The notes beneath the pieces were generated by a model. That model was not told the origin of the DNA, made no database searches, and worked only from the letters and a program-made list of their open reading frames with translations. DNA of 64,000 nt. Origin: a virus. Shown one piece after another: positions 10,621-50,773 of the stretch (positions within the stretch are counted from its first letter, which is position 1; each line of letters starts with the position of its first letter). The stretch spans positions 1 to 64,000 of the IMG/VR virus record IMGVR_UViG_3300050821_017219; one strand, written 5' to 3'. The position numbers and the translations under genes were made by a program.

Positions 10621-10775
10621 TAGTTGTGGTCGTAGTACTCGTCGTCTCCGTACTCTCGGGGTGCACATCGGAGACGGCGCCGCCGTGCCAGGAACCGGTG
10701 TGCTACCACACCTATCCGGCACCATGGGACGGGGGAGTGGTGACCGATGGTGGTGCACAAGATGGTCCGGACTAG
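10608..10775 (+). CDS. Short lipoprotein (55 aa)
   Basis: A GTG-started frame overlapping the end of the preceding gene by 13 bases. The n-region is followed by an extreme Val-rich core (LIVVVVVLVVSV) and a lipobox LSGC then TSE. The mature peptide is only about 37 residues, with two cysteines and a Gly/Asp-rich tail. The signal is strong for such a short frame. Confidence 0.6.
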   Translation: MDTLIVVVVVLVVSVLSGCTSETAPPCQEPVCYHTYPAPWDGGVVTDGGAQDGPD

Positions 10776-10801
10776 GACATTCAGCCCGCTAGGAGAACAT
10801 T

Positions 10802-12477: not shown

Positions 12478-12507
12478 TCGGCTCAATAGCTCTAAATAAG
12501 GAAAGCC

Positions 12508-12735
12508 ATGAAACCGTCAATCGTCATTACCACGCTCGCTCTCGCCGCGTGCGGTAGCCGACCGCCGACGGCAATCATCGAAGAGCCGCCAGATCGCCTC
12601 GCTGCCGCCGGAACCGGTCTGCTACTCGAGCGGCGCGCCGCAGGACAGCTCGCGAATCATCACGGAGTGGGTGCTCACGCTCTAACTCGTATCGTCTCGT
12701 CTACGTCTCAAACGCCGCCAGCGCCAACGCGTTGA
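12508..12735 (+). CDS. Small lipoprotein (75 aa)
   Basis: Signal MKPSIVITTLALAAC with lipobox LAAC then GS, after a TAAGGAAA ribosome-binding site. The mature part is short, polar and Pro/Ala-rich. Could be a surface-exclusion or lysis-related lipoprotein, but nothing specific identifies it. Confidence 0.55.
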   Translation: MKPSIVITTLALAACGSRPPTAIIEEPPDRLAAAGTGLLLERRAAGQLANHHGVGAHALTRIVSSTSQTPPAPTR

Positions 12736-13655: not shown

Positions 13656-14249
13656 ATGAAATCGACACTTCTTGTTCGCCGTGCGCGTGTTTCGATCTCC
13701 TACGAGCCGCAGTCGGGGGCGACCGGCGCAACAGGATCGCCGGGGGGTGCAACCGGAGCAACCGGCGCAGCGGGCTCACCTGGAGGAGCAACAGGCGCAA
13801 CGGGAGCCGCAGGCGGAGGGGCGATCGTCAACTTCGCCTCCTTCTTCGCGCTCATGCCCGGCGACAACGCGTCGACCATCGCCGTAGGCGCGGCGATTCA
13901 GTTTCCGCAAACCGGACCGACGGCCGGGCTCTCCCCGCCGACGCGCGCTTCAGCATCGACGTTTACTCTCCCAAACGTCGGCGTCTACGAAGTCACGTGG
14001 CAGGCGAGCATCACCGAAGCCGGACAGCTGCAGCTCGCGCTCGCTGGGGTCGGTCTGGCCAGCACAGTCGTTGGTCGAGCAACGGGCACCAACCAGATCT
14101 TCGGATCGACCATCATCAACAACCTCGTCGCTGGTCAAGTTCTGTCGGTCATCAATCCGGCCGGCAACTCAACGGCGTTGACGATGACGGTCATTGCCGG
14201 AGGAACGCATTCGGTTTCGGCGACGCTGAGCATCAAACAGCTGTCGTAA
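13656..14249 (+). CDS. Collagen-like fibre with TNF/BclA-like head
   Basis: A 197-residue protein. The N-terminal tag STLLVRRARVSIS is shared with three other fibre genes here. Residues 21-56 are Gly-X-Thr/Gly-X-Y collagen repeats. Residues 58-197 form a beta-rich head whose FTLPNVGVYEVTWQASI segment and following strands resemble the C-terminal trimeric (TNF/C1q-like) domain of BclA spore-filament proteins. Trimeric spikes or fibres of this type contact host surfaces. Domain assignment is from pattern resemblance only. Confidence 0.75.
   Translation: MKSTLLVRRARVSISYEPQSGATGATGSPGGATGATGAAGSPGGATGATGAAGGGAIVNFASFFALMPGDNASTIAVGAAIQFPQTGPTAGLSPPTRASASTFTLPNVGVYEVTWQASITEAGQLQLALAGVGLASTVVGRATGTNQIFGSTIINNLVAGQVLSVINPAGNSTALTMTVIAGGTHSVSATLSIKQLS
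13716..13823 (+). repeat. Collagen-like GXY coding repeat
   Basis: Codons for about twelve Gly-X-Y triplets dominated by Gly-Ala-Thr, encoded by mixed synonymous codons, so the repetition is in the protein more than in the DNA. Confidence 0.8.
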
Positions 14250-14274
14250 ATTCAAAGACGTATCTAAAACGCCG

Positions 14275-14481
14275 ATGAATTTGTCGAGACAAACGCAGCT
14301 TCTCGTCGATCAGGCGAACACCATCAAGGCCGCCTACGACGATCTACTGCAACAAATCAGACGAGATGGCCGCTTCGACTTCAGCGCGGCAGTAAAAGCC
14401 GCCGACGTGGAGATGCGCTGGAAGATAGCGCGACTCGCCGCACTAGAGGCTATCGCCAAAGACGCCGAGATAGAGGTTTGA
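14275..14481 (+). CDS. Small helical protein (68 aa)
   Basis: A charged, fully helical protein between two fibre genes; the next gene starts at the base after its stop. Possibly a fibre chaperone or connector by position only. Confidence 0.5.
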   Translation: MNLSRQTQLLVDQANTIKAAYDDLLQQIRRDGRFDFSAAVKAADVEMRWKIARLAALEAIAKDAEIEV

Positions 14482-17121
14482 TTGAGTGCCAACGGCCCCC
14501 CCGGTAATCCCCAGCTCGATGTGCTCCGTGCTCGCGTAGCCATCGGCGGCATCGGCGGGGGTGCGTCCGGCCCTACCGGTGCGACGGGTCCGGCCGGTTC
14601 ACCAGGGGGAGCGACGGGCGCAACTGGTGCCCCCGGAGCAACAGGCGCAGGCGCAACCGGAGCAGTCGGGGCTACAGGTGCGATCGGCGCTACTGGCGCA
14701 GTCGGGGCAACTGGCGCTACCGGCTCTGGCGCTACCGGGGCAACCGGAGCAACAGGTTCCGCCCCTCTCTTTTCGATCACAAATCCAGCGTTTGCGGGAG
14801 GCGCCAGCGCCGCTGCCACACCGACGCAGAACGTCGCCGCTATCAATGCGACAATCGCGGCAGCAAATGCCGCGGGGGGCACGGTCTATGTCCCGAACGA
14901 TCCGGCCGGGGCATACCGCATCAACGCGCCGATCTCGATCCCTCATGACACGGTGATCGTCGGGGAAGCCTCGTCGATCGGTACGCCCAAAAGCGTATTG
15001 CAAGCGGCCGTTGCTATGCCGGCCATGCTGCAAGTTGAAACGCAGCAAAATCAAACCCTGCCGACCCCTGCGCAGATCCGCGCGATCACGCTCGACCAAA
15101 ATCTTCTCGCGATCTGGGGCATCGATCGCCGAAGTGACCTCTCGAGCCGATATAGCAGTGTGCAGTGTCGTAACGCGCCGCTCGATGGCTTCCACTCGAG
15201 CTCACATTCGGTGGCCGTCGCGATTTCGGCTATCGTTCCGGGCGGTGGCGCTGGCGCAGGACAGCTCACGCTCTCGCAACCGGATGTCAGCTACGCGGGC
15301 GACATCTCAAGTTCGGGTACGCACTACGCCATCAAGTTTGTGGTCGCTGGAGGGTACGGCGTCGGGCAATTCGTACTGTCGCAAGACGGGGGCGTAACCT
15401 TCGCTACGGCGCGGCAGACAGTCCAGGCCGTCTCCAATCTCATTGTGACACAGGCTGCTCAGTATACCCACGCGATGGGGTTGCAGGCAACCTTTGCCAA
15501 TATCGTATACGGTCTCAACTGGACTTATACATGGACGGCCACGGGTGGGCTTGAGCCCAACACGAGCAATACGACAATCAACGCGCTCGTGCGCTTCGAC
15601 GATTGCTCTGTCGTCAATCTCGGTGTGGCGTATTGCTCGGACGCCGGTACGCGCGCGATCTACAGCAATCTTTTGGCTCAGGCCTTCACGACTGGTGGGA
15701 CCGTCACCTCGACGCCAGGCTCGCAGCTCTTGGTCGGCACCGGGACGGCGTTTCTCACAGGCTCGCAACCGAATTTGGCGCCTCGACCCGGCGATACTAT
15801 CTGGCTGAATAACAGCCCGGCGGACCCTCGGATCGCCAACTTTCAGATCCTCGCCGTCATGGACGACTTCACGGTGGTCGTATCCGTGGGCGATGCCCCC
15901 AACTTGCCCGCCCTCGCGGGTGTGCACTTCGCGCTCGTCGTCGGAGCCGGCTGCTACGTCACCGATGGCGGCGACAACATCGGAGAGGCTTGGCACGACG
16001 GCTACATGGAGACGGTCGCCAATGGTTGGCGGCTAAGCGGCGTCTCGCCCATGAGCCTCTATAGCCCATTTCTCGAAGCCGACTCCGCCGGTATTGGCGT
16101 GGGGATTGGCGGCCAGATGAGCGCGGGTGCTCAAACTATCGTACAAGCGCCCTACATCAAACTATCAACGCAAGGCCGCCAGTATTACGTCCAGCAGGCT
16201 TCCCTCTGCGAAATCATCGACCCCGAGGGGCCGTTCGGGCCCGATGGGCTAGGGGGCTCGGGCTTCGCGCGCGTCACGTTCAACGGCCAGCCGTACGCCT
16301 ATAACTTCGTCCAGAATGACTTTCAACCCAAAGCCAATTTGGTTTTGCAGGCAAGCGTCGTCTCGGTCACTGTGCCCAATCAAGTCCTCGTCGGCCCTCC
16401 CCTCGATGTGTTCCAGGGGGGCGCCACGGCGTACACGGTGCTTGTCCCGAATGCGGATTACATCGGGACGGCCAACACGCCGCTTTTGCCCGCGCCGAGC
16501 GTGCCCGGACAGCTTTGGCTCATCGAAAATCAGTTGAACAGCGCTCACGTCTTCGAGTTCTTCGATAACGGGACATTCGGGGCATCTCACCTGAACCTGG
16601 CGTGTCAGTCGCTTTTTATGTTTCCGGGCGAGCGGATGCTACTCGTCGCCTCGGAGGTCGCCGGCTCTGTTGCCTCGTGGCAGATCATGGGGGACGTCCA
16701 GCGGAGCTACCGCGGCCAGAGCGGCGAGGGAAGCAAGTGCGGGCCGGGCTCGGGCGTGGCGATCGGCGTCGGAACGATCAACGTGCAGCTCTGGGACGTC
16801 GTGTTTGTTCCAACGAGAGGTTTTGCCGCAAAGCTCAACGTCAGCGTCAAGGACGCGGCATCGGCCTCGTTTGCGTGTTGGCTCGGCTGCACGGTGGGCG
16901 TCGACGGCACGGGGGCCATCATCGGGCAATTCGTACCGACGACGCAGGCGCAAGGCGCCTTCGGCAGCAACGCGGGGCTGCCCCCCGTCGGTTGGGCAAT
17001 GCAATTCGCTATCGTAGTAATCGGGGGCAGTAACCAAGTGGCTGCGCAGGTGACAACGACAGGCGGCATCACGGCAAAAGCGCTTTCCCAGAGCGAGCAG
17101 ATCGCTGCATACCCAATTTAG
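14482..17121 (+). CDS. Collagen-like tailspike with beta-helix domain
   Basis: An 879-residue protein. The TTG at 14482 follows the preceding stop directly. The N-terminus contains LDVLRARV, a relative of the RRARV tag. Residues 30-93 are GXY repeats. Residues 105-150 contain the start of a pectate-lyase-3-like right-handed beta-helix (AINATIAAANAAGGTVYVPNDP), followed by some 500 residues of beta-rich sequence and a separate C-terminal beta domain. This architecture is typical of phage spikes that bind or cleave polysaccharides. Catalytic residues cannot be assigned by eye. Confidence 0.75.
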   Translation: MSANGPPGNPQLDVLRARVAIGGIGGGASGPTGATGPAGSPGGATGATGAPGATGAGATGAVGATGAIGATGAVGATGATGSGATGATGATGSAPLFSITNPAFAGGASAAATPTQNVAAINATIAAANAAGGTVYVPNDPAGAYRINAPISIPHDTVIVGEASSIGTPKSVLQAAVAMPAMLQVETQQNQTLPTPAQIRAITLDQNLLAIWGIDRRSDLSSRYSSVQCRNAPLDGFHSSSHSVAVAISAIVPGGGAGAGQLTLSQPDVSYAGDISSSGTHYAIKFVVAGGYGVGQFVLSQDGGVTFATARQTVQAVSNLIVTQAAQYTHAMGLQATFANIVYGLNWTYTWTATGGLEPNTSNTTINALVRFDDCSVVNLGVAYCSDAGTRAIYSNLLAQAFTTGGTVTSTPGSQLLVGTGTAFLTGSQPNLAPRPGDTIWLNNSPADPRIANFQILAVMDDFTVVVSVGDAPNLPALAGVHFALVVGAGCYVTDGGDNIGEAWHDGYMETVANGWRLSGVSPMSLYSPFLEADSAGIGVGIGGQMSAGAQTIVQAPYIKLSTQGRQYYVQQASLCEIIDPEGPFGPDGLGGSGFARVTFNGQPYAYNFVQNDFQPKANLVLQASVVSVTVPNQVLVGPPLDVFQGGATAYTVLVPNADYIGTANTPLLPAPSVPGQLWLIENQLNSAHVFEFFDNGTFGASHLNLACQSLFMFPGERMLLVASEVAGSVASWQIMGDVQRSYRGQSGEGSKCGPGSGVAIGVGTINVQLWDVVFVPTRGFAAKLNVSVKDAASASFACWLGCTVGVDGTGAIIGQFVPTTQAQGAFGSNAGLPPVGWAMQFAIVVIGGSNQVAAQVTTTGGITAKALSQSEQIAAYPI
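14569..14760 (+). repeat. Collagen-like GXY coding repeat
   Basis: About twenty Gly-X-Y triplets, mostly Gly-Ala-Thr and Gly-Ala-Val/Ile, forming the shaft of the spike protein. Confidence 0.8.
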
Positions 17122-17148
17122 CGTCTGAATTCCGAAAGCAAAATTCCA

Positions 17149-18042
17149 ATGGCAGTCGACCATCCCTTCGTTCGTCGTTCCCGCGTCGCCAACGTCGCTC
17201 TCACCGGCGGAAGTGGCGGCGGTGCCACCGGCGCTTCAGGTAGCAATGGAGCGACTGGCGCTACCGGCTCAAACGGAGCGACAGGTGCGACCGGCGCGGG
17301 GGTAACCGGCGCGACGGGCAGTGCTGGCGCTACAGGATCTCTCGGCGCAACCGGCGCGACCGGAAGTGGAGCAACAGGCGCTACCGGAAGCCAAGGCGCG
17401 ACGGGACCTGGCGCAGGGGCGACCGGGGCTACGGGAGCGACCGGACCGGCCGGCGTTGGCGCTACAGGTGCGACTGGAGCGGGCGTTACGGGAGCCACCG
17501 GAGCCGTAGGCGCAACTGGGTCGGCGGGGGTCGGAGCAACCGGTGCAACTGGCGCAGGAACGGTCGGTGCGACTGGCGCAACGGGCGCGGGCGGCGCAAC
17601 AGGCGCTGCTGGTGCAACGGGGGCGGGCGGGGCCACCGGAGCTACGGGGGCGACACCCGCCGCGACGCTCGTTCAGACCACAAGTGTTTCTAGTGGAAAT
17701 ACGGGGCTAACAACGACCGGCCAAACTCTCACTTCTGTAGGGATTACAATAGCGACTGGGCAGCGCGTCTTTATTTGGGCCTCTTGCTCATCGCAAATCA
17801 CTGCGGGCGTCACATCGACGGCTACCTACAAAATCACGCGAAATGGAACTCAACTTCAGGCGGCGGTGTTCCATAACCAGACCAATGCGGCTACGAGCAG
17901 CACTCCGGTATGTATGTTCGCTTTTGATACTGCGGGCGTAGCCGGTGTGCAGACCTACGCCTTTGTCGGAACGACGAGCGGTGTCAACGGTGACATCACC
18001 GCGATCGCACCGGAGATGATATTCTTCATCACTACTGTCTAA
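17149..18042 (+). CDS. Collagen-like fibre protein (297 aa)
   Basis: The N-terminal tag [12 protein letters not shown] is followed by a long collagen-like shaft (about residues 24-168) and a C-terminal beta domain of about 125 residues ([20 protein letters not shown] onward) that looks like a small trimeric head. Weak GAAAG ribosome-binding site. A surface-exposed fibre is the natural reading; the receptor is unknown. Confidence 0.75.
17218..17652 (+). repeat. Long collagen-like GXY coding repeat
   Basis: The longest GXY tract of the window, about 48 triplets with Gly-Ala-Thr dominant and a few Ser, Asn and Pro substitutions. The opposite strand reads as an open Ala-Pro-Val repeat, which is an artefact. 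Confidence 0.8.
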
Positions 18043-18077
18043 TCGGCTCTAGAAGGTTTCAAGAAAGCAAATACAAA

Positions 18078-19820
18078 ATGGGTCGTTCAACGCTACTTGT
18101 CCGTCGATCTCGCATCAGCGTCGATCCCTCGCCGTCGGGTGGAGGCGGAGGGACGGGGGCCACCGGATCTCCCGGCGCGACCGGGGCCAACGGCGCTACG
18201 GGTGCGACCGGCGCCGGTGTCACGGGAGCGACGGGCAGCGCGGGGGCGACCGGTTCTGCGGGAGCCACGGGGGCTACGGGAGCCGGAGTGACCGGTGCAA
18301 CCGGCTCGCAAGGTGCGACCGGACCGGGCGGTGGTGCGACCGGCGCTACAGGCGCGACCGGAAGTAATGGTGCGACGGGCGCTACCGGAGCCGGTGTTAC
18401 TGGCGCTACCGGCGCCGCTGGAGCTACTGGCGCGGCGGGCGCTGGAGCAACCGGAGCGACGGGGGCAGGTACAGCGGGAGCTACGGGAGCAACTGGGGCA
18501 GGCGGGGGCGGTGCCCTCACGGCGTTCGGAGCGGACCTCGTTGGGTCGGCTGCGACAACGCAGTGGATCGCATCGATCAGCGGGCAAGGTGGTACTGGCG
18601 GGACCGTTCCCATCGGAGGGTCCGCCAATACGGTGATGCAGTTCCGGGCCGGCGCCGTTCAATCTTCGGCGGGGCTTTCGCAGGCACAGCAGACGAGTGA
18701 CATCCCGACGGTCGACCTCGTCTTCGGGTCGCAGCGAGGATTCGCGACTGCAACAGGAACCAACCGCACCGCGGGCAGCATCGTCGCTGCGATTCCAGCG
18801 GTCACCAACGCTGGTACGGCTGCAGGGGCCTTCCGTGTGACGGAATCAGGCGCTGGAGTCATCGCCATCGCGCCTGGAGGCTTCGGGCAAGCGCCAACGT
18901 CTGGCGCTGCTGCTGCCGCAATTTGGTTGAACCTCACTCGCGGTACAGAGTCCGGTACGAACTACTCCATCGCAGCAAACTCTATCAATACGACCGTAAA
19001 TGGAGTCTCTACCGTTCGTCTCGACGTCGCTGGTTTCGATCAGCTTTCCATGACGTCGGTTGGTGCGCAGTTCTTCCGCACCAACGGAACGGTCGCATTC
19101 GGCGGTGGGACCGGCGGAATTATCTCGATCGACAGCTCAGCGATCGTCCCACCGACGGCACTTCCGACGACTGCGGTGCTGGTTTACGCCAATACCGGCT
19201 CCCCAGGCAGCCTAGGGCTGATGGCGACGGGGATCCAGTTCAACAAGACGCTCGGGACGGTTACCGCAACGATCGGATCGGACGGACCCACGACGGATGT
19301 CATACCAAACGGCATCCTAGTGCAAGCGGCATCGGCCTTTGCTGCTGCAGTCACCAACACCACTGGTGGGTCGGTGATTATCGCTGCTGGGGCCGCCTCT
19401 GCGCTCTCCAACGGAACGCAGATCTCACTGTCCGGCGGGGTCACCGGTGGTGGTGTACCCACCAATCTCGGGACGGTTCAGTTCCGAACGTCGGGCGTCG
19501 GCGGCAACTTGTCGGACCCATCGACGCTGTCGGTACCGTTCGCGTGGATCACGGCGCCGTCGTTCTCCATCGCGTCGGGTGGAACGATTACCCTCTCGGG
19601 CGCGCAGGCGGCATCGCCGGTGCTGACGATGACTGGGACGACGGCCGGAACGACGATCGCGTTTCCGAACGTTCCTGGCTTCTGGCTAGTCGACTTCAGC
19701 ACCGTAACAGGTCCGCTCACCTTCACGAGCGGATCTGGAACGACGGCCGCGTTGACGGCAGTGGCGGGAGCCATCGTGACCGTCGTCACCATGGGTGGAA
19801 ACAGAATCCGCATCAAGTAA
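18078..19820 (+). CDS. Collagen-like fibre protein (580 aa)
   Basis: Begins [19 protein letters not shown], the clearest copy of the shared N-terminal tag. Residues 23-150 are GXY repeats; the remaining 430 residues are Gly/Thr/Ser/Ala-rich beta strands suggestive of a long repetitive beta structure. Last gene of the rightward fibre operon; it converges with a minus-strand gene 21 bases away. Confidence 0.75.
18144..18515 (+). repeat. Collagen-like GXY coding repeat
   Basis: About forty Gly-X-Y triplets, mostly Gly-Ala-Thr, forming the shaft of the 580-residue fibre protein. Confidence 0.8.
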
Positions 19821-26304: not shown

Positions 26305-27858
26305 ATGGCCGGAACACTCATCGTTCGTCGAGCTCGCGTCGTCACCAACGTCGGCTCGGGTAGCGGCAACGGCGCAACCGGCGCAACTGGACCGGGCGGA
26401 GGCGCGACTGGACCGACGGGGGCGACAGGTGCAACCGGGGCCGTCGGCGCATCAGGTGCCACGGGTGCTTTCGGTGTCACCGGCGCTACGGGGCCGACCG
26501 CACGCACGCCGCTTGGCGCAGTCAGATTCATCGATCCATCCAACTCATCTGGCCTGGCGTCAGACAGCAACAACGGCGCAACCAACGTAACGCCAATTCT
26601 GACGACAGCGCATCTCAATAACCTTCTGTTCTTCAAATCGCTGACGGCCAATACGACGATTACGTATATGAGCGACGATCTTAGCGGCGTTGGGTTGGAT
26701 TATTCAACGATGGCGTTGGGCAATTTCAACTTGACGTTTCAGATGACGCCGGTCGTTACGCATACGGGTGGAACGCTCAACGCCGGCACGGTCGCGATCA
26801 ATCCGTTGGCGGCGTCTGGCGGTCAACGCCAAGTCGTTCATACTTCCGACGTTGTGACGTTCAATCCGTTTGTCTTTACAGGATTGGGCGGAGCGTCGGC
26901 GCATCCACAACGACTCGTCGCGACGAGTGGAGGCGACGTCAATACTGGCGCGTGGATCGTCTCAGCAACAACCCCAGCTTCGCCGTCGATGTCTCGGTCA
27001 ATCACGCCTGGTGGAACCAACGGCAATCTAACGATTGGCGACACCTACAAGATTCAGCGTGGGGGGATCATCAACGTCACGCAAGGCCAACCTCCCACAC
27101 AAGACGCCGGGCCGTCTGGAGGTGGCGGTGGTCTAGTGTTCTTCAACGACGCCGCCTTTGGCCTAACGAGCTGGGGCATCGGAGGTATACAATACGCCCG
27201 ATGTAGCTTTGAGAATTCACTTGTCGTTGCTGCGGGTCTTACCGATTGCTTCGTCGGCGCTGGTATTATCGAGATTCTACCGATTGGATCTATCTCGATG
27301 ACAGCCGGTGTTCTTGTGACGACTATCTTCGATTTACTTCATTCGTCCATTAGTTTTGCTGACGATACGTACATCACCGGATCAGCCTTTATTCTTTCGG
27401 GCAACGTCTATGGTAGCGTAACGGCTCTGCCAGGTAGTGGTAACGGGATTCAAATCCAAGATATGACGAACCCTACCGGCGCGCTCATCGTTTTGACCGC
27501 CATCCCGTTTGCGAATCAGACGGGGTCGCCGTCGAACCCGCTCATCTGGGGAAACGGTAACGTCGGACCGGGTATCACGATCGGACCGGGAGCGTGTATC
27601 ACGGTGGCTGACGAGGTTGGGGTTGTACCGAGCGTCACCGGAACCGGCGGAGACTTCGCATTCATCGCCGAAAATAGCGGACCGCTTGTGACGGTAGCGC
27701 GCGCTTGGAACAACGCGACGGGCGCCTACACGGAAGCGGGGGGCGTTGCGACCAGAACGACGACCTGGGCGCATTTCGCTGCTAGTATCTCCCCCGGTGG
27801 CGGTTTTCTCTTTCAAGCGCATAACGTAGCGACAGCAGCGTCAATCATTGCGGTCTGA
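26305..27858 (+). CDS. Collagen-like fibre with beta-helix region
   Basis: A 517-residue protein beginning MAGTLIVRRARVVTNVGSG, the shared fibre tag. Residues 22-68 are GXY repeats. From residue 70, VRFIDPSNSSGLASDSNNG is a typical entry to a right-handed beta-helix, followed by long beta-rich coils. Paired with the upstream transglycosylase-like gene; probably a receptor-binding or depolymerising spike. Confidence 0.75.
   Translation: MAGTLIVRRARVVTNVGSGSGNGATGATGPGGGATGPTGATGATGAVGASGATGAFGVTGATGPTARTPLGAVRFIDPSNSSGLASDSNNGATNVTPILTTAHLNNLLFFKSLTANTTITYMSDDLSGVGLDYSTMALGNFNLTFQMTPVVTHTGGTLNAGTVAINPLAASGGQRQVVHTSDVVTFNPFVFTGLGGASAHPQRLVATSGGDVNTGAWIVSATTPASPSMSRSITPGGTNGNLTIGDTYKIQRGGIINVTQGQPPTQDAGPSGGGGGLVFFNDAAFGLTSWGIGGIQYARCSFENSLVVAAGLTDCFVGAGIIEILPIGSISMTAGVLVTTIFDLLHSSISFADDTYITGSAFILSGNVYGSVTALPGSGNGIQIQDMTNPTGALIVLTAIPFANQTGSPSNPLIWGNGNVGPGITIGPGACITVADEVGVVPSVTGTGGDFAFIAENSGPLVTVARAWNNATGAYTEAGGVATRTTTWAHFAASISPGGGFLFQAHNVATAASIIAV
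26368..26508 (+). repeat. Collagen-like GXY coding repeat
   Basis: About fifteen Gly-X-Y triplets in the shaft of the 517-residue fibre protein. Confidence 0.75.
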
Positions 27859-31141: not shown

Positions 31142-31330
31142 ATGAAAAACGTATCGACTGAAAAAGTCGACGAGTTGTTTCGTGCGGTCGAAGCGCATCT
31201 CGCGCAAGCGCCGGATTTGGCGGATCGGCTAGAGGCGGAGCTTCAGCATCATCTCGCCCGCGCGCGAGAAATCGAGACGGCGCTCGTTCATATACGACCG
31301 ATTGCCCTTGCGCATCGAAGCCGTCGATGA
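31142..31330 (+). CDS. Small helical protein (62 aa)
   Basis: An AAAGGCGG site precedes the ATG. Entirely helical and charged; first gene of the long rightward replication block, overlapping the next gene by ATGA. Confidence 0.55.
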   Translation: MKNVSTEKVDELFRAVEAHLAQAPDLADRLEAELQHHLARAREIETALVHIRPIALAHRSRR

Positions 31331-31704
31331 CGAAGCGCATCCTCGTCGTCGGGGGTCGCTCCTTCAAAGACTGGCGTCTCCTGTTTCGCATCCTCGGCGA
31401 GATCAAGGCAGCGCTCGACGAGAAGCCCGTCATCGTCACCTGGAACGCCATCGGCGAGAAGACCGACGGCGCCGTTAGGCTGGCGCGGAAGTTCGCGCGT
31501 GAGAACGACCTGCTTTGGGTCGAGAATCTCTTCGCGGAGCTACAGCTTGTCGTCGCCTTCCCGGGGGCCGGCACAGAGCGAGCGCTGCAGCATGCATGGC
31601 GCAAGCGCATCCCGGCGCTGAAGGTCTTCGCCGACGGCAACGTCATCGTCGTCGGAAGTAGCTGCAAACAATTCTTTGCGACACGGAAGGCGGCACCACG
31701 ATGA
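31327..31704 (+). CDS. SLOG-fold (DUF2493-like) protein, diverged
   Basis: A 125-residue protein with the Rossmann-type start ILVVGGRSFKDW and later VVAFPGAGTERAL, both hallmarks of the YspA/DUF2493 branch of SLOG proteins, which bind nucleotides or nucleotide-derived ligands. The central RGADxxA-like segment is replaced by WNAIGEKTDGAVRLA. Lies directly before a more canonical paralogue. Confidence 0.65.
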   Translation: MTKRILVVGGRSFKDWRLLFRILGEIKAALDEKPVIVTWNAIGEKTDGAVRLARKFARENDLLWVENLFAELQLVVAFPGAGTERALQHAWRKRIPALKVFADGNVIVVGSSCKQFFATRKAAPR

Positions 31705-32123
31705 GGGTTCTGGTCTGCGGCGGTCGCGACTATCGCGGCATCGAATGCGTCAACGCGACGCTCGATCGCCTCCACGCCGTCTACGGCATCGAGGTGGTCA
31801 TCCATAGCGGCGTCGGTAGTCTTACTGATTTTTACGCCGGAGGATGGGCGACTCATCACGGCGTTGGCCAGCATGTTTTTCGCGCAGATTTCAGAAGCTA
31901 CGGCAAGTCTGCCGGCCCGCGCCGCAACGCCGAGATGCTCCGCAAAGGGAAGCCTGACCTGGTCGTGGTCTTCCCGGGGAGATGCGGAACGCGCGACATG
32001 TTTCACAAGTCGATCCGCGTCGGTGTCGCTGTCGTCGAAATAATGTCGTCGCGCGTCGTAAAAATTCATGGCGAGGCCGTTCGATACGCGCGCGCCTTCG
32101 CTGAAGAAAAGGCGACGCCATGA
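31701..32123 (+). CDS. DUF2493/YspA-like SLOG protein
   Basis: A 140-residue protein with the canonical DUF2493 order: MRVLVCGGRDYRG, then EVVIHSGVGSLTDFYAGGWA, then ADFRSYGKSAGPRRNAEML, then PDLVVVFPGRCGTRDM. The family adopts the SLOG fold; ligands are probably nucleotide-like. Phages often carry these genes with unproven roles. Coupled to its paralogue and to the next gene by ATGA overlaps. Confidence 0.8.
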   Translation: MRVLVCGGRDYRGIECVNATLDRLHAVYGIEVVIHSGVGSLTDFYAGGWATHHGVGQHVFRADFRSYGKSAGPRRNAEMLRKGKPDLVVVFPGRCGTRDMFHKSIRVGVAVVEIMSSRVVKIHGEAVRYARAFAEEKATP

Positions 32124-32254
32124 CGCTGCCGATTTTTTGGATGATTCTGCTGCTCGGCGCCTTCGCTATCGTTTTCTGCGGTCTGCTGATCTGGCTGTCA
32201 TTCGTCGAGACGAAGTTTTTAGACGGCTCCAACAAAAACGGCGACGGCGAATGA
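32120..32254 (+). CDS. Small single-TM protein (44 aa)
   Basis: ATGA overlaps at both ends. One long hydrophobic segment (IFWMILLLGAFAIVFCGLLI) then a polar acidic tail with Asn and Gly. Placed directly before the primase-helicase gene. Confidence 0.5.
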   Translation: MTLPIFWMILLLGAFAIVFCGLLIWLSFVETKFLDGSNKNGDGE

Positions 32255-33966
32255 CCGCCGCCAACCCGAAACGGCCGTCACCCCTGGCGGCTGCGGCAGC
32301 CATCGTTGACGACGACAGCAACGCCAACGGCGGCGACTTCGACGGCATCAGCGGCATCGTCGCTAAAATTCAACAACAGAATCAATCGTCGACGACTCCG
32401 ACTGCTTCTGCTTCGACACCGCCACCAACAACGCCGCCGAAGCAACGCCAGCAGCCACCGGCGAACACCAAGCGCTTCGCGAAGACCGACACCGGCAACG
32501 CCGAGCGACTCGCCTACTACTTCGGGCAGCGCTTCCGCTACGTCGAGGAGTGGGACGAATTTCTGGTCTGGCGATCGACCCACTGGCAACGCGACCCCCA
32601 GCACGTTCGGGTGGAGGCGTTGACGAAGGAGGTCATCGCCAAAATTCGCGACGAAGCGCGTGGCTTCGGATCAACGACAGCAGAAGGTCGCGCGCTCTAC
32701 GCATGGAGTTTAGAAAGTCAGAAGCGGGCGAAGCGTCAGGCGATGGCCGCGCTCTCCCGAAGCGAGCTGGGGGTAGCCGTCTCCCACGAGAAGTTGGACG
32801 CCAACGCGTGGCTGCTGAACGTCAAGAACGGCGTTTTAGATCTACGCAGCGGTGAACTGTCGCCGCATCGACCGACCGACTTGATCACACGCGTCGCCGA
32901 CGTCAGATTCGATCGCAAAGCTAAAGCCGAAAATTTCAAACGATTTCTGTCGCGTGTGTTGCCGGATGAAGAGACGCGTCTATTTTTGCAGCGCTTCATC
33001 GGCTACAGCCTCACGGGGGATGTGGGGGAGCGCGTTTTCGTCGTTTGCTACGGCGGTGGCCGCAACGGCAAGTCGGTGTTGCTGCGCATCATCCAAGCGA
33101 TGCTCGGCAAATATTCGACGACCTGCGCGCCTGGTCTTTTGATGGCGCGCAAGGATGAAGCTCACCCCGCCGACGTCGCCGACTTATTTGGCGCGAGGTT
33201 GGCGGTGGCTTCTGAAGTCAAAAAAGGCCGAACGTTCGACGAAGAGAAGGTCAAGCGCATCACCGGCAACGACATGCTCAAGGCGCGGCGGATGCGCGAG
33301 AATTTCTGGGAGTTCTTGCCGACGCACAAGATCATCTTGGCGACCAACCACAAGCCGAGGGTGGCGGATGCGACCGACAGTTTTTGGGACCGCATCGCGC
33401 TCATCCCGTTCGACGTGCGCATCGACGATGGTGAAGTCGATCGAAGTCTCGCCGAGCGTCTGATCAAGGAGGAGCTCTCCGGCATCCTTACGTGGGCGAT
33501 GGAGGGCTGCTTGGCGTGGCAGAAGGAGGGGCTGCGCATCCCGAAGGCCATCGTCGACGCGACGCGGGAGTATCGCGCTGCCGAGGACGTCGTAGGGGGC
33601 TTCGTGGGCGAACGCTGCTTGTTCAGCACCATTGAGTTTGAGTCGATAGCGACGCTCATGGCGGCGGCGCAGAAGTGGTGCGCGACCAACGAACGCTTTC
33701 CCTTCAGCAAAAAAGACCTGGGCGAGTGGTTGAAGCAGCACAAGTGCATCGAGGGCCGAGATAAAGCCTGCAAAGTGCGTGGATGGAAGGGAATTCGCCT
33801 ACGAACGCTCTCCGAAATGGCTCCAGACGTTCAAGACGTTCTAGACTCAAATTTACCCTTATCGGTAGGATCGGGAGTTACAGATCCCAATACGCGCGCC
33901 ATAGGTAAAACAGCGTCTGAAACGGCTAGAACGTCTAACGCTAAAAAAGGCGATAAAATCAACTAG
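32251..33966 (+). CDS. D5/P4-type primase-helicase
   Basis: A 571-residue SF3 helicase of the poxvirus D5/phage P4 type. After a low-complexity Thr/Pro/Gln N-terminus, a D5_N region precedes Walker A GGGRNGKSVLL (about residues 268-278), a Walker B-like RLAVASEV and the sensor/motif C ILATNHKPRV. A C-terminal DNA-binding module (about 460-512) contains AAAQKWCATNERFPFSKKDL and GWKGIRLR. A catalytic primase domain is not evident at the N-terminus, so it may be helicase only. Replicative helicase is the expected role. The start overlaps the TM gene. Confidence 0.88.
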   Translation: MTAANPKRPSPLAAAAAIVDDDSNANGGDFDGISGIVAKIQQQNQSSTTPTASASTPPPTTPPKQRQQPPANTKRFAKTDTGNAERLAYYFGQRFRYVEEWDEFLVWRSTHWQRDPQHVRVEALTKEVIAKIRDEARGFGSTTAEGRALYAWSLESQKRAKRQAMAALSRSELGVAVSHEKLDANAWLLNVKNGVLDLRSGELSPHRPTDLITRVADVRFDRKAKAENFKRFLSRVLPDEETRLFLQRFIGYSLTGDVGERVFVVCYGGGRNGKSVLLRIIQAMLGKYSTTCAPGLLMARKDEAHPADVADLFGARLAVASEVKKGRTFDEEKVKRITGNDMLKARRMRENFWEFLPTHKIILATNHKPRVADATDSFWDRIALIPFDVRIDDGEVDRSLAERLIKEELSGILTWAMEGCLAWQKEGLRIPKAIVDATREYRAAEDVVGGFVGERCLFSTIEFESIATLMAAAQKWCATNERFPFSKKDLGEWLKQHKCIEGRDKACKVRGWKGIRLRTLSEMAPDVQDVLDSNLPLSVGSGVTDPNTRAIGKTASETARTSNAKKGDKIN

Positions 33967-33982: not shown

Positions 33983-34396
33983 GTGACCGATCTCACAAAC
34001 AGCCACGGTTTTATAGCTCAGCCGGAAAGCCGCCAGATGAAGACCGCCAAGCACTACGCCGACCTTCTCGTCAACAACGTCACAAAAACGGTGGCGGCGC
34101 CGACCATCGAAGACTGGCGCGCCGAAGCCGAAAAAATCTTCGCCTTCATTCTGTTCCAACCGCAGCATCGGCCCAACATTCGCGTCAACGAGCAGATCAT
34201 CGCTACGACGGTCATCTACATCGACAGCGTCGGCAACAAGTGGGGCGAGATCGAGACGGCAGAAGCGATTCGTCGCGCGAAGGCGTTAGGGTTGTCACTC
34301 GTCGAGATCAACCCGCGCGCGTCGCCACCGGTCTGCAAGGCGATCAAGTGGCCCTACAGAAAAAAGCCGACCGAACCACCGCCGGAGATCGTATGA
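33983..34396 (+). CDS. IF3 N-terminal-domain protein
   Basis: A 137-residue protein. Residues 63-126 match the N-terminal domain of bacterial translation initiation factor IF3: RPNIRVNEQI, then GNKWGEIETAEAIRRAKALG, then LSLVEINPRASPPVCKAIKW, which parallels the family's AxxxxLDLVE.SP.A.PPVC pattern. The C-terminal IF3 domain, which carries most of the 30S-binding and anti-association activity, is absent. Residues 1-60 are an unrelated helical extension. The GTG at 33983 lacks a clear ribosome-binding site; ATG 34037 is an alternative. It overlaps the next gene by four bases. The domain call is strong; the effect on the ribosome is unknown. Confidence 0.85.
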   Translation: MTDLTNSHGFIAQPESRQMKTAKHYADLLVNNVTKTVAAPTIEDWRAEAEKIFAFILFQPQHRPNIRVNEQIIATTVIYIDSVGNKWGEIETAEAIRRAKALGLSLVEINPRASPPVCKAIKWPYRKKPTEPPPEIV

Positions 34397-34704
34397 GCAA
34401 CGTCAACGGCAAGACGAATGGCATCGCCAAAAAATCCGAAGCTGATGCCGCTTCCGACGACGACGTCGATACGCTTCCGACCATCGAAGCCGTCGTCGAA
34501 GCCTTCCTCGCCGACTCGACGTCGCCCGATCGTGCCTCCTTCACGTCGACGGCGGACATCATGGCGGCGGCGCGCGCGTGGTGCGACGACCGCGGCGAGT
34601 TTCGCTTCGGCCGGCGCTTGCTCGCGAAGCAGCTGCAGCAGCGTGGGTGCAAGCCGCAGCGGACGAACACACAGCGGGGATGGAGAGGAGTGAGGTTGCG
34701 ATGA
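34393..34704 (+). CDS. Stand-alone copy of D5 helicase C-terminal domain
   Basis: A 103-residue protein. Its C-terminal half (IMAAARAWCDDRGEFRFGRRL, then GWRGVRLR) aligns with the end of the primase-helicase at 32251 (LMAAAQKWCATNERFPFSKK, then GWKGIRLR). That region in D5/P4 proteins is a winged-helix DNA-binding module. It may bind the same origin or compete with the helicase. Starts in an ATGA overlap with the IF3-like gene. Confidence 0.75.
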   Translation: MSNVNGKTNGIAKKSEADAASDDDVDTLPTIEAVVEAFLADSTSPDRASFTSTADIMAAARAWCDDRGEFRFGRRLLAKQLQQRGCKPQRTNTQRGWRGVRLR

Positions 34705-40848: not shown

Positions 40849-41019
40849 ATGCCTGACGAATTGGTGGGTCAATCAGAAGGATTCGATCTTCATCGAATTC
40901 TACTGATCCTAGGTGGAATGGCCTTCGTTATGCCGTTCTCGGTGGCATTCGTCTATTCTCTTGCGTGGCTAGTAAAGCGAGTCGACAACGAATTGTATCG
41001 TCGTGGTTACCGCAAATGA
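40849..41019 (+). CDS. Small membrane protein (56 aa)
   Basis: One or two membrane segments (RILLILGGMAFVMPFSVAFV) with a basic C-terminus. Its TGA overlaps the ATG of the polymerase gene (ATGA), which fixes both genes. The role beside a polymerase is unclear. Confidence 0.6.
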   Translation: MPDELVGQSEGFDLHRILLILGGMAFVMPFSVAFVYSLAWLVKRVDNELYRRGYRK

Positions 41020-43586
41020 ACGCCCTTCCAACCGGCGTCGCCTACGACGCTCGCGCGCATCTCGCCGAATGCGATAGGTGTCCGCTCGGTGGGAATGTTG
41101 TCGTTCCCCCCGACCCCCCGCGTCGGGCGTTGAAGCTCATCGTAATTGGCGAAGGCCCAGGCCGTTTAGAAGAACGATACGGAAGAGCCTTCGTCGGTCC
41201 GAGCGGCAAGATGCTCGATGCGGCGCTGCTCGAAGCCGGCGGCCATCGCCAAAACAGCTACGTCACCAACGTCATGCTTTGCCGCGTCGACGACGACAAG
41301 CAGATGGATGCAGCCATCGCCTGTTGCGCGCCACGTCTCGCCAAAGAATTGTCTGAATTGCCATCAGACATACCGATTCTATCGCTTGGCGCTGGCGCCT
41401 CTCGGATGACCATCGGCAAGTCGGGCATCCAAAAGTATCGCGGCTTCGTCTGGAAGGCGCCAGAGATAAAACAACAACAGATAAGAAATGCTGAAAGGCT
41501 TTACGAAAAACGCATCGAAAAAAAGCGAAGCCTCAAAGACGTCGAGAAGGCGTTGAACAGCTGGACGATTCTGAAGGCGAGACAGCAGATTCAAGGCCGA
41601 ACCGTTATTCCGACAGTACATCCGGCCTACTTGCTTAGGGGTGCAGACGGGTGGTATCCGATCTTCCGCGTGGACGTCAAGCGCGCCATCGCCTTGTCGC
41701 TGAATCCTCATACGATTCTCGAAGATGAAGGCGCGTTCGTCAAGACGACGTCGCCGAAGGAGGCAGCAAAACTACTCCGAGGCTTCTCGCAAACAGTCTT
41801 GGTCGACATCGAGACCGACGCCCCCGACGCCATGCGAGCCGGCATCACCTGCGTTGGCGTCGCCGACGTCGGCGATCCGACCAAGATTGTCGTGATGGAT
41901 CGCCGCAGCGAAAATCATCCGTGGCCTCGTGGCTTCATCAAAGTGTTGAAGCGATTCTTGCGCCGCCGAACCGTCGTCGGCCACAACATCAAAAACTTCG
42001 ACGAGCCGGTATTGAACCGCTACGGCATCTTTCTCGGCAGCGTCGAGGATACACTAGTGGCGCATCGAAGTTACGCGAGTCATTTGCCGCAGTCGCTGGC
42101 GCACGTAGCTTCGGTTTATTGCACGAGCGCGCCGTGGAAGTTGAAATTCAAGACGTCGGAAGAGAAAGGAGCGGTCGCTGGGTTTGGCGTCAAGGCAGAG
42201 GACCTCGCCATGTACAACGCCGCTGACTGTAGGCTCAACGCCTTCGCTTGGTTGCGGATGCAACCCGACTTGAAGCGAGAGATGAGCGTCTACCGCGACG
42301 ACACGGCGATGGCGGGGCTGTTCAGCCAGATGCAGCGGACCGGATTGCTTGTCGACGTCGAGAAGCAGCGTCAGCTCTCCAAGAAGTTGAAGCATCGCGC
42401 CGCCGCTTTGGTAGGTGAGATGCGCCAACTATTGCGCCGCCGCCAATTCAGCCCCGGTAAAACGGCCGACATCCGCAAGGCGTTGTACGGTCAGCTGAAG
42501 GCACCGCTTTGGCTCGCCCCGCCAACCCCCACCGGCCTTCCATCGACCGCCGCCATCGTCTTGGAGGCCCTAAAGGAGAGCGACACGCGCGCCGGCAAGC
42601 TCGCCGACTTGATCATCCGCTGGCGCTCCGCCAATGACAGCCGCAGCGAATACTTGGACGTGTATGTTCACCCTGATGGCCGCGTCAAACCAAGTTGGGG
42701 GCAAGTCGAAACTGGGCGGCCCCGCACGCGTGGGCCGAACATCCTCAACATCCCCCGCATCGCTTTCTGCTCGGGTTGCGGCGCGAAGCTGCTCGACGGC
42801 GTCATCCACAAAGACACCTGCAAAAAACGAGACGTACCGCAACCGGAGGAGATGCTCCGCGACATCTACGTTTGCGCGCCGGGGTGTAGCTTTGTTTACT
42901 ATGATATTTCTCAGGCGGAGATGCGCCTAGCGGCCTATCTGTCTGATGACGAAAACTTCATCGCGTCGTGCGCGAAGGATATCCATACGGAGAACGCATG
43001 CGTGTTGTTCCCCGATGGCGCCGACTTGATCAGAAGTGATCCGCAGGGTCGAGGCAAGAAGTTCCGTGAGATCGCAAAAAGCTGCGGTTTCGCAGTCAGC
43101 TACCTCGCGGAGGCGCCTAAGATTTTCGCTACGCTCCGAGGAAAAGGTTTCGACGTGTCGATGGATGACGTCGAGACGATGCTCGACAACCTTCGCTCGT
43201 CCTACCGGCGCTACTACGCCTACGTCGAAGGCAACGTCGAGTTTTGCCGCAAGCATGGGTTTCTCAGAACGCCATTCGCCGGTCGGATCAGGTGGCTTGG
43301 TTATTTCCCCCGACCTACGCAGGTGGCCAACTTTCCGATTCAGTCGGGCGTCGCCGACATCGTCAACCGACGGCTCTTGGAGATGGAGAAGAGACGCACT
43401 AAAAACGCTCGGTTGGTCGTCTACCACTACGATGCTGCGATCTACGAGACGCCAGCTGCGGAGGTCGAGACGATGAAAGGTCTCATCAAGGAATTGTGGG
43501 AGGAACCGGTGGTCGTTCCGACGAACGGGCGCAGCTTCGTACTACCGATTGAGCTCAAAGATGGGAGTAGGTTGAGTGACTTCTGA
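41016..43586 (+). CDS. Uracil-DNA glycosylase / family A DNA polymerase fusion
   Basis: An 856-residue fusion. Residues 1-225 are a family 4-like UDG with Fe-S cysteines (C19, C22, C89, C103 or C104), GEGPG (45-49), FVGPSGKMLD and HPAYLLR (from 202). Residues 255-410 are a DEDDy proofreading exonuclease (DIE 264-266, NIKNFD with D329, YNAAD 400-404). Residues 430-856 are polymerase: ILNIPR, motif A DISQAEMR (630-637), motif B from R679, motif C YDA at 805-807, where the usual HDE has lost His and Glu but kept Asp. A Cys/His insert (C585, C588, H598, C602) lies before motif A. ATG 41016 is chosen over GTG 40965 for the ATGA overlap. It would copy DNA and remove uracil. Confidence 0.9.
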   Translation: MNALPTGVAYDARAHLAECDRCPLGGNVVVPPDPPRRALKLIVIGEGPGRLEERYGRAFVGPSGKMLDAALLEAGGHRQNSYVTNVMLCRVDDDKQMDAAIACCAPRLAKELSELPSDIPILSLGAGASRMTIGKSGIQKYRGFVWKAPEIKQQQIRNAERLYEKRIEKKRSLKDVEKALNSWTILKARQQIQGRTVIPTVHPAYLLRGADGWYPIFRVDVKRAIALSLNPHTILEDEGAFVKTTSPKEAAKLLRGFSQTVLVDIETDAPDAMRAGITCVGVADVGDPTKIVVMDRRSENHPWPRGFIKVLKRFLRRRTVVGHNIKNFDEPVLNRYGIFLGSVEDTLVAHRSYASHLPQSLAHVASVYCTSAPWKLKFKTSEEKGAVAGFGVKAEDLAMYNAADCRLNAFAWLRMQPDLKREMSVYRDDTAMAGLFSQMQRTGLLVDVEKQRQLSKKLKHRAAALVGEMRQLLRRRQFSPGKTADIRKALYGQLKAPLWLAPPTPTGLPSTAAIVLEALKESDTRAGKLADLIIRWRSANDSRSEYLDVYVHPDGRVKPSWGQVETGRPRTRGPNILNIPRIAFCSGCGAKLLDGVIHKDTCKKRDVPQPEEMLRDIYVCAPGCSFVYYDISQAEMRLAAYLSDDENFIASCAKDIHTENACVLFPDGADLIRSDPQGRGKKFREIAKSCGFAVSYLAEAPKIFATLRGKGFDVSMDDVETMLDNLRSSYRRYYAYVEGNVEFCRKHGFLRTPFAGRIRWLGYFPRPTQVANFPIQSGVADIVNRRLLEMEKRRTKNARLVVYHYDAAIYETPAAEVETMKGLIKELWEEPVVVPTNGRSFVLPIELKDGSRLSDF

Positions 43587-48227: not shown

Positions 48228-48620
48228 ATGAAAGCCGATAGTTCAATCGCGCTTGTCATTAGCTGGTACGCCCAACCGATGCTTTTGGCCGTTCGCGAAC
48301 CACGTGGTTTGTGTTTGCCAGGTGGAAAAGTAGAGCCCGATGAGACGCCACAAGCAGCGTGCTGCCGTGAGCTTCGCGAAGAGACCGGCATCAAAACATT
48401 ACCTGGGCACATCGTCTATATCGCCGAGGGCTTGAGCGGCACCGAAGACGATCGGTTGGTGCGCATCTACCACGTCCGAGAAGCAATTCTACGTGGAGCG
48501 TGTGGTCAGTGGACGACCTTCGAGAAGCTGCTCGCCGAATCGCCGTTCGCCGACTTCTACAGGCGCCATCTGCCGAGCGGCATTGTTCACCTACCGCTGA
48601 CGCGCTTCCACGTTGGCTGA
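48228..48620 (+). CDS. Nudix hydrolase
   Basis: A 130-residue protein with a complete Nudix box at residues 33-55: GGKVEPDETPQA followed by CRELREETGI. It hydrolyses nucleoside diphosphate-linked compounds such as oxidised dNTPs, NADH or ADP-ribose; substrate unknown. Fits the nucleotide metabolism cluster. Confidence 0.85.
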   Translation: MKADSSIALVISWYAQPMLLAVREPRGLCLPGGKVEPDETPQAACCRELREETGIKTLPGHIVYIAEGLSGTEDDRLVRIYHVREAILRGACGQWTTFEKLLAESPFADFYRRHLPSGIVHLPLTRFHVG

Positions 48621-48622
48621 GC

Positions 48623-48628
48623 TACACT
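48623..48628 (+). promoter_or_regulatory. -10-like TACACT abutting a start codon
   Basis: GCTACACT ends six bases before the ATG at 48635, with no ribosome-binding site between. Same layout as the elements before 53707, 58523 and 59461. Confidence 0.45.
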
Positions 48629-48634
48629 GACGCC

Positions 48635-50773
48635 ATGCCTTCCACCCGCCTCTCCAGCGCCGAAAAGCCCACCATCGAAGGTCTCGTTGCAGAACGCCGC
48701 ACCTACGACGGCAAGTGGGTAGGATTTTGGAACGACGGTACGATCGTTGTCGGTCATCCGGTGGTGAACAAAACGATCGCGCGGAACGTACCCAAAGCGC
48801 TCTGGTTTATCATCGCCGATGACGTTTCGCTCTACGACGAAGCTGAACTAAAAGGACTCGTCAAAGCGGCGCGGAAGGCATATGACCTCCACAAGCGCGA
48901 GCCACATCGAGTCCGAAGCGAAGATCTACTCCGTCTCATGCGTTCGTATGCGCCGCCAACGCATGCGGCAGCATCAGAGACGACGCGTCTCTCCAGCGGC
49001 GACGTCTCCTCGTCCGATCGCCCGACGACGACCCCCGACGAGTCCGGCCCCCGCATCGTCGCCGCCGGTACCTACGAGGCGGTGCTGCGCCGTTGTCTCT
49101 CAGATTTAGGATCGAACGACCCGGACATCTTGCTGCGGATGAGCGGCGACTTCTGGAAGCGTTGCCGCGACGCCGGAGTCGATCCGAAGGTGGCGGCGAC
49201 GACCATCTACACCGCCGAGCGGCATCACCATGAAGTCGCGCGCGTCGTGATCAAAGAAGCATCCGAAACATCTTCAGCGTCAGAATCGCCAACGATGCTC
49301 GGCGAAGAGTGGGAAGTCATCGTCAGGCGTCACGGCGCATCGATGAACAAGATCGTCGAAGCTGCTGGTAAGAAGGCTGACGCCGTCGAAGGCCCGAACG
49401 TCATCTTCGGAGACTTCCGCGACGATGAGAAGGCAGCGGCGTTTGCGCGCAAGATGACGAAGGCTGGTTTTGTTAGCTACTATGGCCCGCACAAACAAAT
49501 CTCTGCTGAGGCCAAAGAGACTTCGACGTCGCCGTTTCAGCGGCCAGACGCGCTAACGCATGCGCGCGGCTACTACAAGCAGTATCTACAGGTCGAGAAG
49601 GAAGATCCGGGCGGTCTCCACTCGAGCGAGCTTCGCGGCTACCTTCTCGCGCAATTGCTTCGCCAAGATGGATCGATCCCCACCTGGGATGAAGCGGTCG
49701 CGCTGATCGATGGCGGCGCCGAATTGTCGGACGCAGAAATCGCCGCCATCGCCGCCGCTGTCGTCGCCTCGGGTGGATCGACCGACAAAAACGTGGAGAA
49801 GCTAGGCGGAAGATCATTCAGTCACTATGGCGCGCCACGACGATTGACCGACCACGAATTGGCGCGCGTGCAGCAATGTATCCACGCAGCAGACGAAGCA
49901 ACCGAAGCCGACGACAAAAAACCAGACTGGGCGCAGCGCCGTTTCCTCAAGCTGATCAAAGAGGTCCGCACCAACGGCGGGCGCGCCCGAATCGCCGACC
50001 TGCGCGATCGCCTTCCATTGCTATCGAAGTCGGAGTTCGATCAGACGCTCGTACGGATGCAGCGCGAGGGCTTCATCGTACTCTACCCCATCGACAACCC
50101 TCAAGAGATGAAGCAGCGCGACATCGACTCCGCCGTGAGCATCGCCGGTGACCCGCGGATGCTTATCTACATCGAGCCGGCGTGGGAGAGCTTCGTAGTC
50201 AACGAGGCTGAGGAGATGCCGCGCGGCGAAGGTGGCGTGCAGTCGCAAATCGCAGCGCGAATGCAGCCGGTTGAAGTAACGCCAGACAAATCAGCTTGTG
50301 TGACGTGCATCCCATGGATCAAAGTCTCTCGCGACCCCGCGCAGCACGCGGCCATCGCTGAGCTCGCGAAGAAGTTCGGCAAGATCCGAACGCCGCGCGA
50401 TGTCTACGCCATCGTCGGCGACGACTTGAACCGCGAGACACAAGAGGTCTTCCTCGTCATCGCGCTGAACGTTCACTCGCGGCTGATGTGCGCCCCCTAC
50501 GAGATTGCACGAGGGCAGCGTGACCGAGTCGCCGTCGGCATCGACAACGTCATGGACGCCGCCTCCGACGCGCGATGCGCCGCCTTTCTAGTTTGCCATC
50601 AACATCCTGGAGACTCACCCGAGCCCTCCGAGGCCGACTGGAAGCTCTACAAGGATATCGTCAAGGCGACCCCACCTGGTAGAGTTTGTATCGACAGCCT
50701 CGTCGTCGGACCAGCGAGCATCTATAGCTGCGCCGAGAAAAAGCTCCACAAAATCGCTGCGTCGAGGCGTTGA
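48635..50773 (+). CDS. Large protein with C-terminal RadC-like JAB domain
   Basis: A 712-residue protein. Most of it is unassigned: charged helical regions, a possible winged helix (about 430-500; RFLKLIKEVRTNGGRARIAD, LVRMQREGFIVLYPI), then a C-terminal domain from about 570 with the RadC-like JAMM signature CHQHPGDSPEPSEAD (about 654-668), H-x-H-P...P-S-x-x-D. RadC/JAB proteins are zinc metalloprotease folds; phage copies occur as assembly proteases or DNA-repair-like proteins. The length and the N-terminal fusion are unusual. A -10-like element abuts the start. Confidence 0.7.
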   Translation: MPSTRLSSAEKPTIEGLVAERRTYDGKWVGFWNDGTIVVGHPVVNKTIARNVPKALWFIIADDVSLYDEAELKGLVKAARKAYDLHKREPHRVRSEDLLRLMRSYAPPTHAAASETTRLSSGDVSSSDRPTTTPDESGPRIVAAGTYEAVLRRCLSDLGSNDPDILLRMSGDFWKRCRDAGVDPKVAATTIYTAERHHHEVARVVIKEASETSSASESPTMLGEEWEVIVRRHGASMNKIVEAAGKKADAVEGPNVIFGDFRDDEKAAAFARKMTKAGFVSYYGPHKQISAEAKETSTSPFQRPDALTHARGYYKQYLQVEKEDPGGLHSSELRGYLLAQLLRQDGSIPTWDEAVALIDGGAELSDAEIAAIAAAVVASGGSTDKNVEKLGGRSFSHYGAPRRLTDHELARVQQCIHAADEATEADDKKPDWAQRRFLKLIKEVRTNGGRARIADLRDRLPLLSKSEFDQTLVRMQREGFIVLYPIDNPQEMKQRDIDSAVSIAGDPRMLIYIEPAWESFVVNEAEEMPRGEGGVQSQIAARMQPVEVTPDKSACVTCIPWIKVSRDPAQHAAIAELAKKFGKIRTPRDVYAIVGDDLNRETQEVFLVIALNVHSRLMCAPYEIARGQRDRVAVGIDNVMDAASDARCAAFLVCHQHPGDSPEPSEADWKLYKDIVKATPPGRVCIDSLVVGPASIYSCAEKKLHKIAASRR

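What the first reader, a model, noticed from the sequence alone, without database searches (positions are those of the whole stretch)
33983..34396. Virus-encoded stand-alone IF3 N-terminal domain
Residues 63-126 match the N-terminal domain of translation initiation factor IF3, including the LVEINPRASPPVCK block, but the C-terminal IF3 domain is missing and a 60-residue foreign extension is attached. It sits inside a replication operon directly between the primase-helicase and its duplicated C-terminal module. IF3 domain N contacts the 30S platform and initiator tRNA, so this protein could bias start-codon choice toward viral or leaderless mRNAs, or block host initiation. That link is inference.
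Basis: partly seen in the sequence, partly recalled or inferred. Interest (0 to 1): 0.88.

Follow-up and report, generated by a model that had tools for sequence, protein, structure and literature searches.

The report
Phage protein with lone IF3 N-domain
A bacterial virus carries, inside its DNA-replication gene cluster, a small protein made of only the front half of the bacterial translation-start factor IF3 plus a new helical piece; every other IF3 gene I could find and read whole, in viruses or bacteria, has both halves, so this may be a stripped-down ribosome-binding tool, although its function is untested.

Summary
ORF 33983-34396 (+) (GTG start, or more likely ATG 34037) encodes a real IF3 N-terminal domain: Pfam IF3_N E=1.5e-14, 54 bits against a cut-off of 26.9; predicted fold pLDDT 97-98 over the domain, 0.7-1.0 Å from solved IF3-N structures. 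No IF3 C domain exists in any frame of the 78-kb record. The N-terminal extension (two predicted helices) matches nothing known. The gene lies between a D5-type primase-helicase and a copy of that primase's C-terminal module, and overlaps the latter by ATGA. Among 228 IF3_N reading frames in the loci I fetched, and in 141 Myxococcota genomes, every untruncated IF3 other than this one has both domains; known phage IF3s are two-domain and mostly in jumbo phages. The domain keeps its structural core and the PPVCK rRNA-contact segment but has lost conserved R20, R25, D52 and the D69-Y70-G71 turn. Best guess (about 0.4): a phage effector docking at the IF3-N site of the 30S platform and disturbing host IF3. 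It is a singleton, so an exapted fold or a relic remains possible.

The parts
33983..34396 (+). ORF for the stand-alone IF3-N protein (137 aa from GTG)
34037..34039 (+). alternative, likelier start codon ATG (119 aa product); GGAAAG at 34024-34029 with a 7-nt spacer
   Evidence: the first predicted helix begins at residue 17
34031..34153 (+). N-terminal extension: two predicted helices (residues 17-34 and 42-57), no known relative
34175..34351 (+). IF3 N-terminal domain, residues 65-123
   Evidence: Pfam PF05198 1.5e-14; fold match to 1tif and 6o6d
34352..34393 (+). short basic/proline tail PYRKKPTEPPPEIV in place of the IF3 linker and C domain
34393..34396 (+). ATGA stop/start overlap with the next gene
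32068..33966 (+). upstream primase-helicase (D5_N + DUF5906)
34393..34704 (+). downstream stand-alone copy of the primase C-terminal module

Best explanation
The gene encodes a single-domain derivative of translation factor IF3: the N domain is kept, the linker and C domain are gone, and a helical hairpin is added at the front. Most likely it is expressed with the replication genes and acts on the host ribosome: it docks on the 30S platform where host IF3-N sits, using the retained PPVCK segment and basic tail plus the new hairpin as extra anchor, and so competes with or perturbs host IF3, lowering initiation fidelity or efficiency on host mRNAs. Shown here: domain identity, fold, missing C domain, operon position, residue losses and rarity. 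Inferred: expression, 30S binding, competition with IF3, benefit to the phage.
For: Strong domain homology and fold. Of 13 positions conserved in at least 90% of 165 IF3 sequences, 11 are kept, including PPVC. The segment 63-70, reported to contact 16S rRNA (PMC5037330), is retained as PPVCKAI + KW and is more basic; a Tyr aligns with Y75, a platform contact in the same paper. The ORF is intact, has coding GC3, and overlaps the next gene by ATGA. Phages do encode ribosome-directed factors, including two-domain IF3 (PMC7162821, PMC7824862, PMC5259590; own comparisons). Domain N and domain C of IF3 bind the 30S independently (PMC8266586).
Against: The C domain does nearly all known IF3 work, and the N domain mainly adds affinity (PMC4611024), so a lone N domain may bind poorly. 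R20, R25, D52 and the D69-Y70-G71 turn, conserved in most two-domain IF3s (D52 in all 165), are lost, while even divergent jumbo-phage IF3s keep the R25 and D52 equivalents. The neighbours are replication genes, not translation genes; no tRNA gene was found. No ortholog was found, so selection cannot be measured; the branch is about five times the median terminal length.
Confidence: 0.4

Rival explanations
1. The IF3-N fold was exapted: it no longer acts on translation but serves as a small RNA/protein-binding adaptor in the replication complex, paired with the primase and the extra primase C-terminal module.
For: It is sandwiched between primase and its C-module copy and coupled by ATGA. Polar residues conserved in IF3 are lost while the hydrophobic, Gly and Pro core is kept. 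The new helical hairpin could be a protein-interaction piece.
Against: PPVCK, K72 and Y75 equivalents are retained, which a pure scaffold would not need. No relative with the same arrangement was found: none of the viral records and Myxococcota stretches around primase relatives has IF3_N.
Confidence: 0.25
2. It acts with initiator tRNA: it binds the fMet-tRNA elbow or the 30S initiation complex and biases start-codon choice toward phage mRNAs.
For: IF3-N binds the initiator-tRNA elbow in 30S pre-initiation complexes (PMC5037330), and loss of IF3 N-domain function relaxes start-codon choice (recalled from the E. coli infC literature, not read here).
Against: R25 and R20 equivalents are replaced by Ile. 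Several phage genes have SD-like leaders, and no leaderless or special start pattern was seen in the genes checked.
Confidence: 0.15
3. It is a decaying fragment of a captured infC gene without function.
For: Missing C domain, lost conserved residues, long branch, singleton.
Against: Open frame with coding GC3, 11 of 13 near-invariant positions kept, high-confidence fold, an added helical extension and an ATGA overlap with an intact gene; phages usually purge dead genes (general knowledge).
Confidence: 0.15
4. Artefact: a frameshifted or chimaeric full-length IF3.
For: A single metagenome-derived record; no second copy to check.
Against: No IF3_C in any frame of the record; intact adjoining genes on both sides; residues lost inside the N domain itself.
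Confidence: 0.05

Closest known systems
Bacterial translation initiation factor IF3 (infC, TIGR00168), N-terminal domain PF05198
   Same: Homologous N domain: Pfam hit over cut-off, rmsd 0.7-1.0 A to 1tif/6o6d, up to 56% identity over the core
   Different: No linker, no C domain; R20, R25, D52 and D69-Y70-G71 lost; added helical extension; not in a thrS-infC-rpmI-rplT setting
Jumbo-phage IF3 (e.g. Escherichia phage 121Q gp47, Agrobacterium phage Atu_ph07 AUZ94813.1, Klebsiella phage K64-1, huge-phage IF3 of PMC7162821)
   Same: Phage-encoded and with an IF3 N domain
   Different: The four translated are two-domain proteins of about 167-173 aa in genomes over 340 kb, beside ClpS-like, protease or bS21 genes; they keep the R25 and D52 equivalents
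PHROG 9787 'translation initiation factor'
   Same: Weak profile match over the N domain (4e-6)
   Different: The profile spans 168 positions (both domains); only positions 3-58 match

Membership tests
IF3 N-terminal domain (Pfam PF05198) | Profile match above curated cut-off | tested here: met
   54.4 bits vs 26.9
IF3 N-terminal domain (Pfam PF05198) | IF3-N fold | tested here: met
   AlphaFold2 pLDDT 97-98 over the domain, Foldseek hits 6o6d, 1tif, 5lmn
Translation initiation factor IF3 (infC) | C-terminal domain PF00707 | tested here: not met
   absent from the whole record
Translation initiation factor IF3 (infC) | Lys-rich helical linker | tested here: not met
   protein ends 14 residues after the domain
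Translation initiation factor IF3 (infC) | Equivalog score TIGR00168 | tested here: not met
   45 bits vs 60
Translation initiation factor IF3 (infC) | Conserved polar N-domain residues (R20, R25, D52, D69-Y70) | tested here: not met
   replaced or deleted; R14, K66, K72, Y75 equivalents kept
Translation initiation factor IF3 (infC) | 30S binding and anti-association/fidelity activity | not testable with these tools
   needs biochemistry
Phage-encoded IF3 (jumbo phages) | Two-domain IF3 in a phage genome | tested here: not met
   N domain only; compared

The most novel reading that the evidence does not exclude
A phage has reduced IF3 to its platform-binding N domain and fused it to a new helical anchor to make a dedicated, dominant-negative ribosome effector made with the replication proteins: a host-takeover factor that displaces host IF3-N without having IF3 activity of its own.
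Probability: 0.25. Interest if true: 0.78.

Novelty: new variant of a known kind. Interest (0 to 1): 0.58.

Why it matters
The separate role of the IF3 N domain is debated, because in vitro the C domain alone does nearly everything. A naturally occurring lone N domain, kept by a phage, would be a ready-made probe of what IF3-N does on the ribosome and might reveal a new way for phages to redirect host translation. It also does not fit the 'jumbo phage carries a spare host gene' explanation of phage IF3, since here the essential half is missing.

Tried and rejected
Close-relative scans of viral and genome collections with the whole protein found nothing. Scans with IF3_N alignments and DNA patterns gave only two-domain IF3s or frames cut by a contig or stretch end. 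Alignment A2 held two synthetic rows used only to widen the search patterns, not as evidence. Primase relatives in three viral records and about a dozen Myxococcota contig stretches have no IF3_N nearby. The polymerase gave no viral relative. A tree of the N domain does not place it (nearest-tip support 0.67, long branch), so the slight preference for Polyangia/Myxococcota in BLAST ranking is only a hint about the host. A hidden C domain by frameshift was rejected. The extension alone found nothing. No Rfam family, tRNA or defence-system model matched. The fidelity papers on R25/Q33/R66 and on N/C-domain deletions in E. coli are not held (for the one looked up); that point rests on my memory.

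Full report
WHAT IS THERE. The ORF at 33983-34396 (+) is intact and coding: its codon-position GC (0.55/0.43/0.77) has the high third-position value of the neighbouring genes, while the overlapping frame has the opposite pattern. It is an IF3 N-terminal domain by sequence (Pfam PF05198 E=1.5e-14, 54.4 bits, cut-off 26.9; solved IF3 chains E down to 2.3e-6) and by predicted fold (mean pLDDT 97-98 across residues 71-120; best solved matches 6o6d, 1tif, 5lmn with rmsd 0.7-1.0 Å). No IF3 C domain occurs in any frame of the 78,382-base virus record. The equivalog model for full IF3 is not reached (45 vs 60 bits).

ANATOMY. Residues 65-123 are the IF3-N domain. In front lie two predicted helices (17-34, 42-57) without any database match. 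Behind is a short basic, proline-rich tail in place of the lysine-rich linker. ATG at 34037 (residue 19), with GGAAAG seven bases upstream and just at the start of the first helix, is the likelier start; GTG 33983 has no good ribosome-binding site. The stop overlaps the next start as ATGA. Upstream is a D5-type primase-helicase; downstream is a stand-alone copy of that primase's C-terminal module (BLASTP 9e-12; PHROG 6088 4e-6). The same region carries a UDG-family-A polymerase fusion and a Sak4-like protein, so this is a replication/recombination region.

RESIDUES. Against 165 two-domain IF3s (viral and bacterial) the protein keeps 11 of 13 positions that are at least 90% conserved, nearly all core or PPVC residues. 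It has lost D52 (invariant in all 165), D69-Y70-G71 (deleted or realigned), R20 and R25 (now Ile). It keeps R14, a Lys at R66, K72 and a Tyr aligned with Y75. Four divergent jumbo-phage IF3s keep the R25 and D52 equivalents. The segment 63-70 contacts 16S rRNA and Y75 contacts the platform in 30S complexes (PMC5037330). From memory, R25, Q33 and R66 contact the initiator-tRNA elbow; the paper I looked up for this was not held. The pattern therefore fits retained platform or rRNA contact better than a normal tRNA-elbow contact. This is inference from residues only.

RARITY. A locally built N-domain profile found 228 N-domain reading frames in 234 sequences (the window plus all loci fetched by then; some overlap or repeat); 222 also carry the C domain. 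The six without are this gene (three copies of the same place: window, L001, L102) and three frames that run off a contig or stretch end (L055, L126, L207). In 141 Myxococcota genomes the shortest open frame with a match is 177 aa. In the annotated phage collection 70 records match a full phage IF3; all 60 listed matches run well past the N domain, and those I translated are two-domain. The library of viral predicted structures gives only full-length proteins (172-173 aa) as confident hits. I therefore know of no other lone IF3-N protein, but the metagenome collection could not be scanned, and pattern scans can miss divergent relatives.

MECHANISM. IF3's two domains bind the 30S separately (PMC8266586). 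The C domain can do all IF3 functions in vitro, and loss of the N domain costs about two orders of magnitude of affinity (PMC4611024). A lone N domain cannot replace IF3; it could compete for or perturb the N-domain site. Leaderless bias has no support: several genes have SD-like leaders.

KNOWN CONTEXT. Phage IF3 genes are known (huge phages, PMC7162821; jumbo phages, PMC7824862; phage CBB and relatives, PMC5259590). What is new is the single-domain architecture, the replication-operon position, the moderate record size and the helical extension. I call it a new variant of a known kind.

Noticed in passing
window 40965-43586 (+): Uracil-DNA-glycosylase domain (Pfam UDG 2.5e-19) fused in front of a family A DNA polymerase (1.5e-33); no viral relative found by pattern scan.
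   Followed up: partly
window 34393-34704 (+): Stand-alone copy of the primase C-terminal module directly behind the IF3-N gene (BLASTP 9e-12 to the primase).
   Followed up: yes
window 59732-62035 (+): Weak Hint (0.0024) and LAGLIDADG_3 (1.2e-4) matches in a 767-aa protein: possible intein in an unidentified phage gene.
   Followed up: no
window 48500-50773 (+): 757-aa protein with a RadC-like JAB domain only at its C-terminal end (7.3e-17).
   Followed up: no
window 13656-19820 and 26305-27858 (+): Several collagen-like proteins rich in G-A-T-G repeats with related N-termini (LLVRRARV / LIVRRARV).
   Followed up: no
window 9763-12735 (+): Row of four lipoprotein-like ORFs with similar signal peptides (ending in AACGS or VACSS/VACGS).
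   Followed up: no
window 31327-32123 (+): Two adjacent ORFs starting alike (MTKRILVVGGR / MRVLVCGGRD); the second matches phrog_289 'GTP-binding domain' (2.2e-15). Neither matches a PADLOC model.
   Followed up: partly
L258 (Vibrio phage 2.275.O): A jumbo-phage IF3 gene sits beside bS21 (RpsU) and an L7/L12-ClpS-like adaptor gene; in L255 and L257 it sits beside ClpS or ATP-dependent-protease genes.
   Followed up: no
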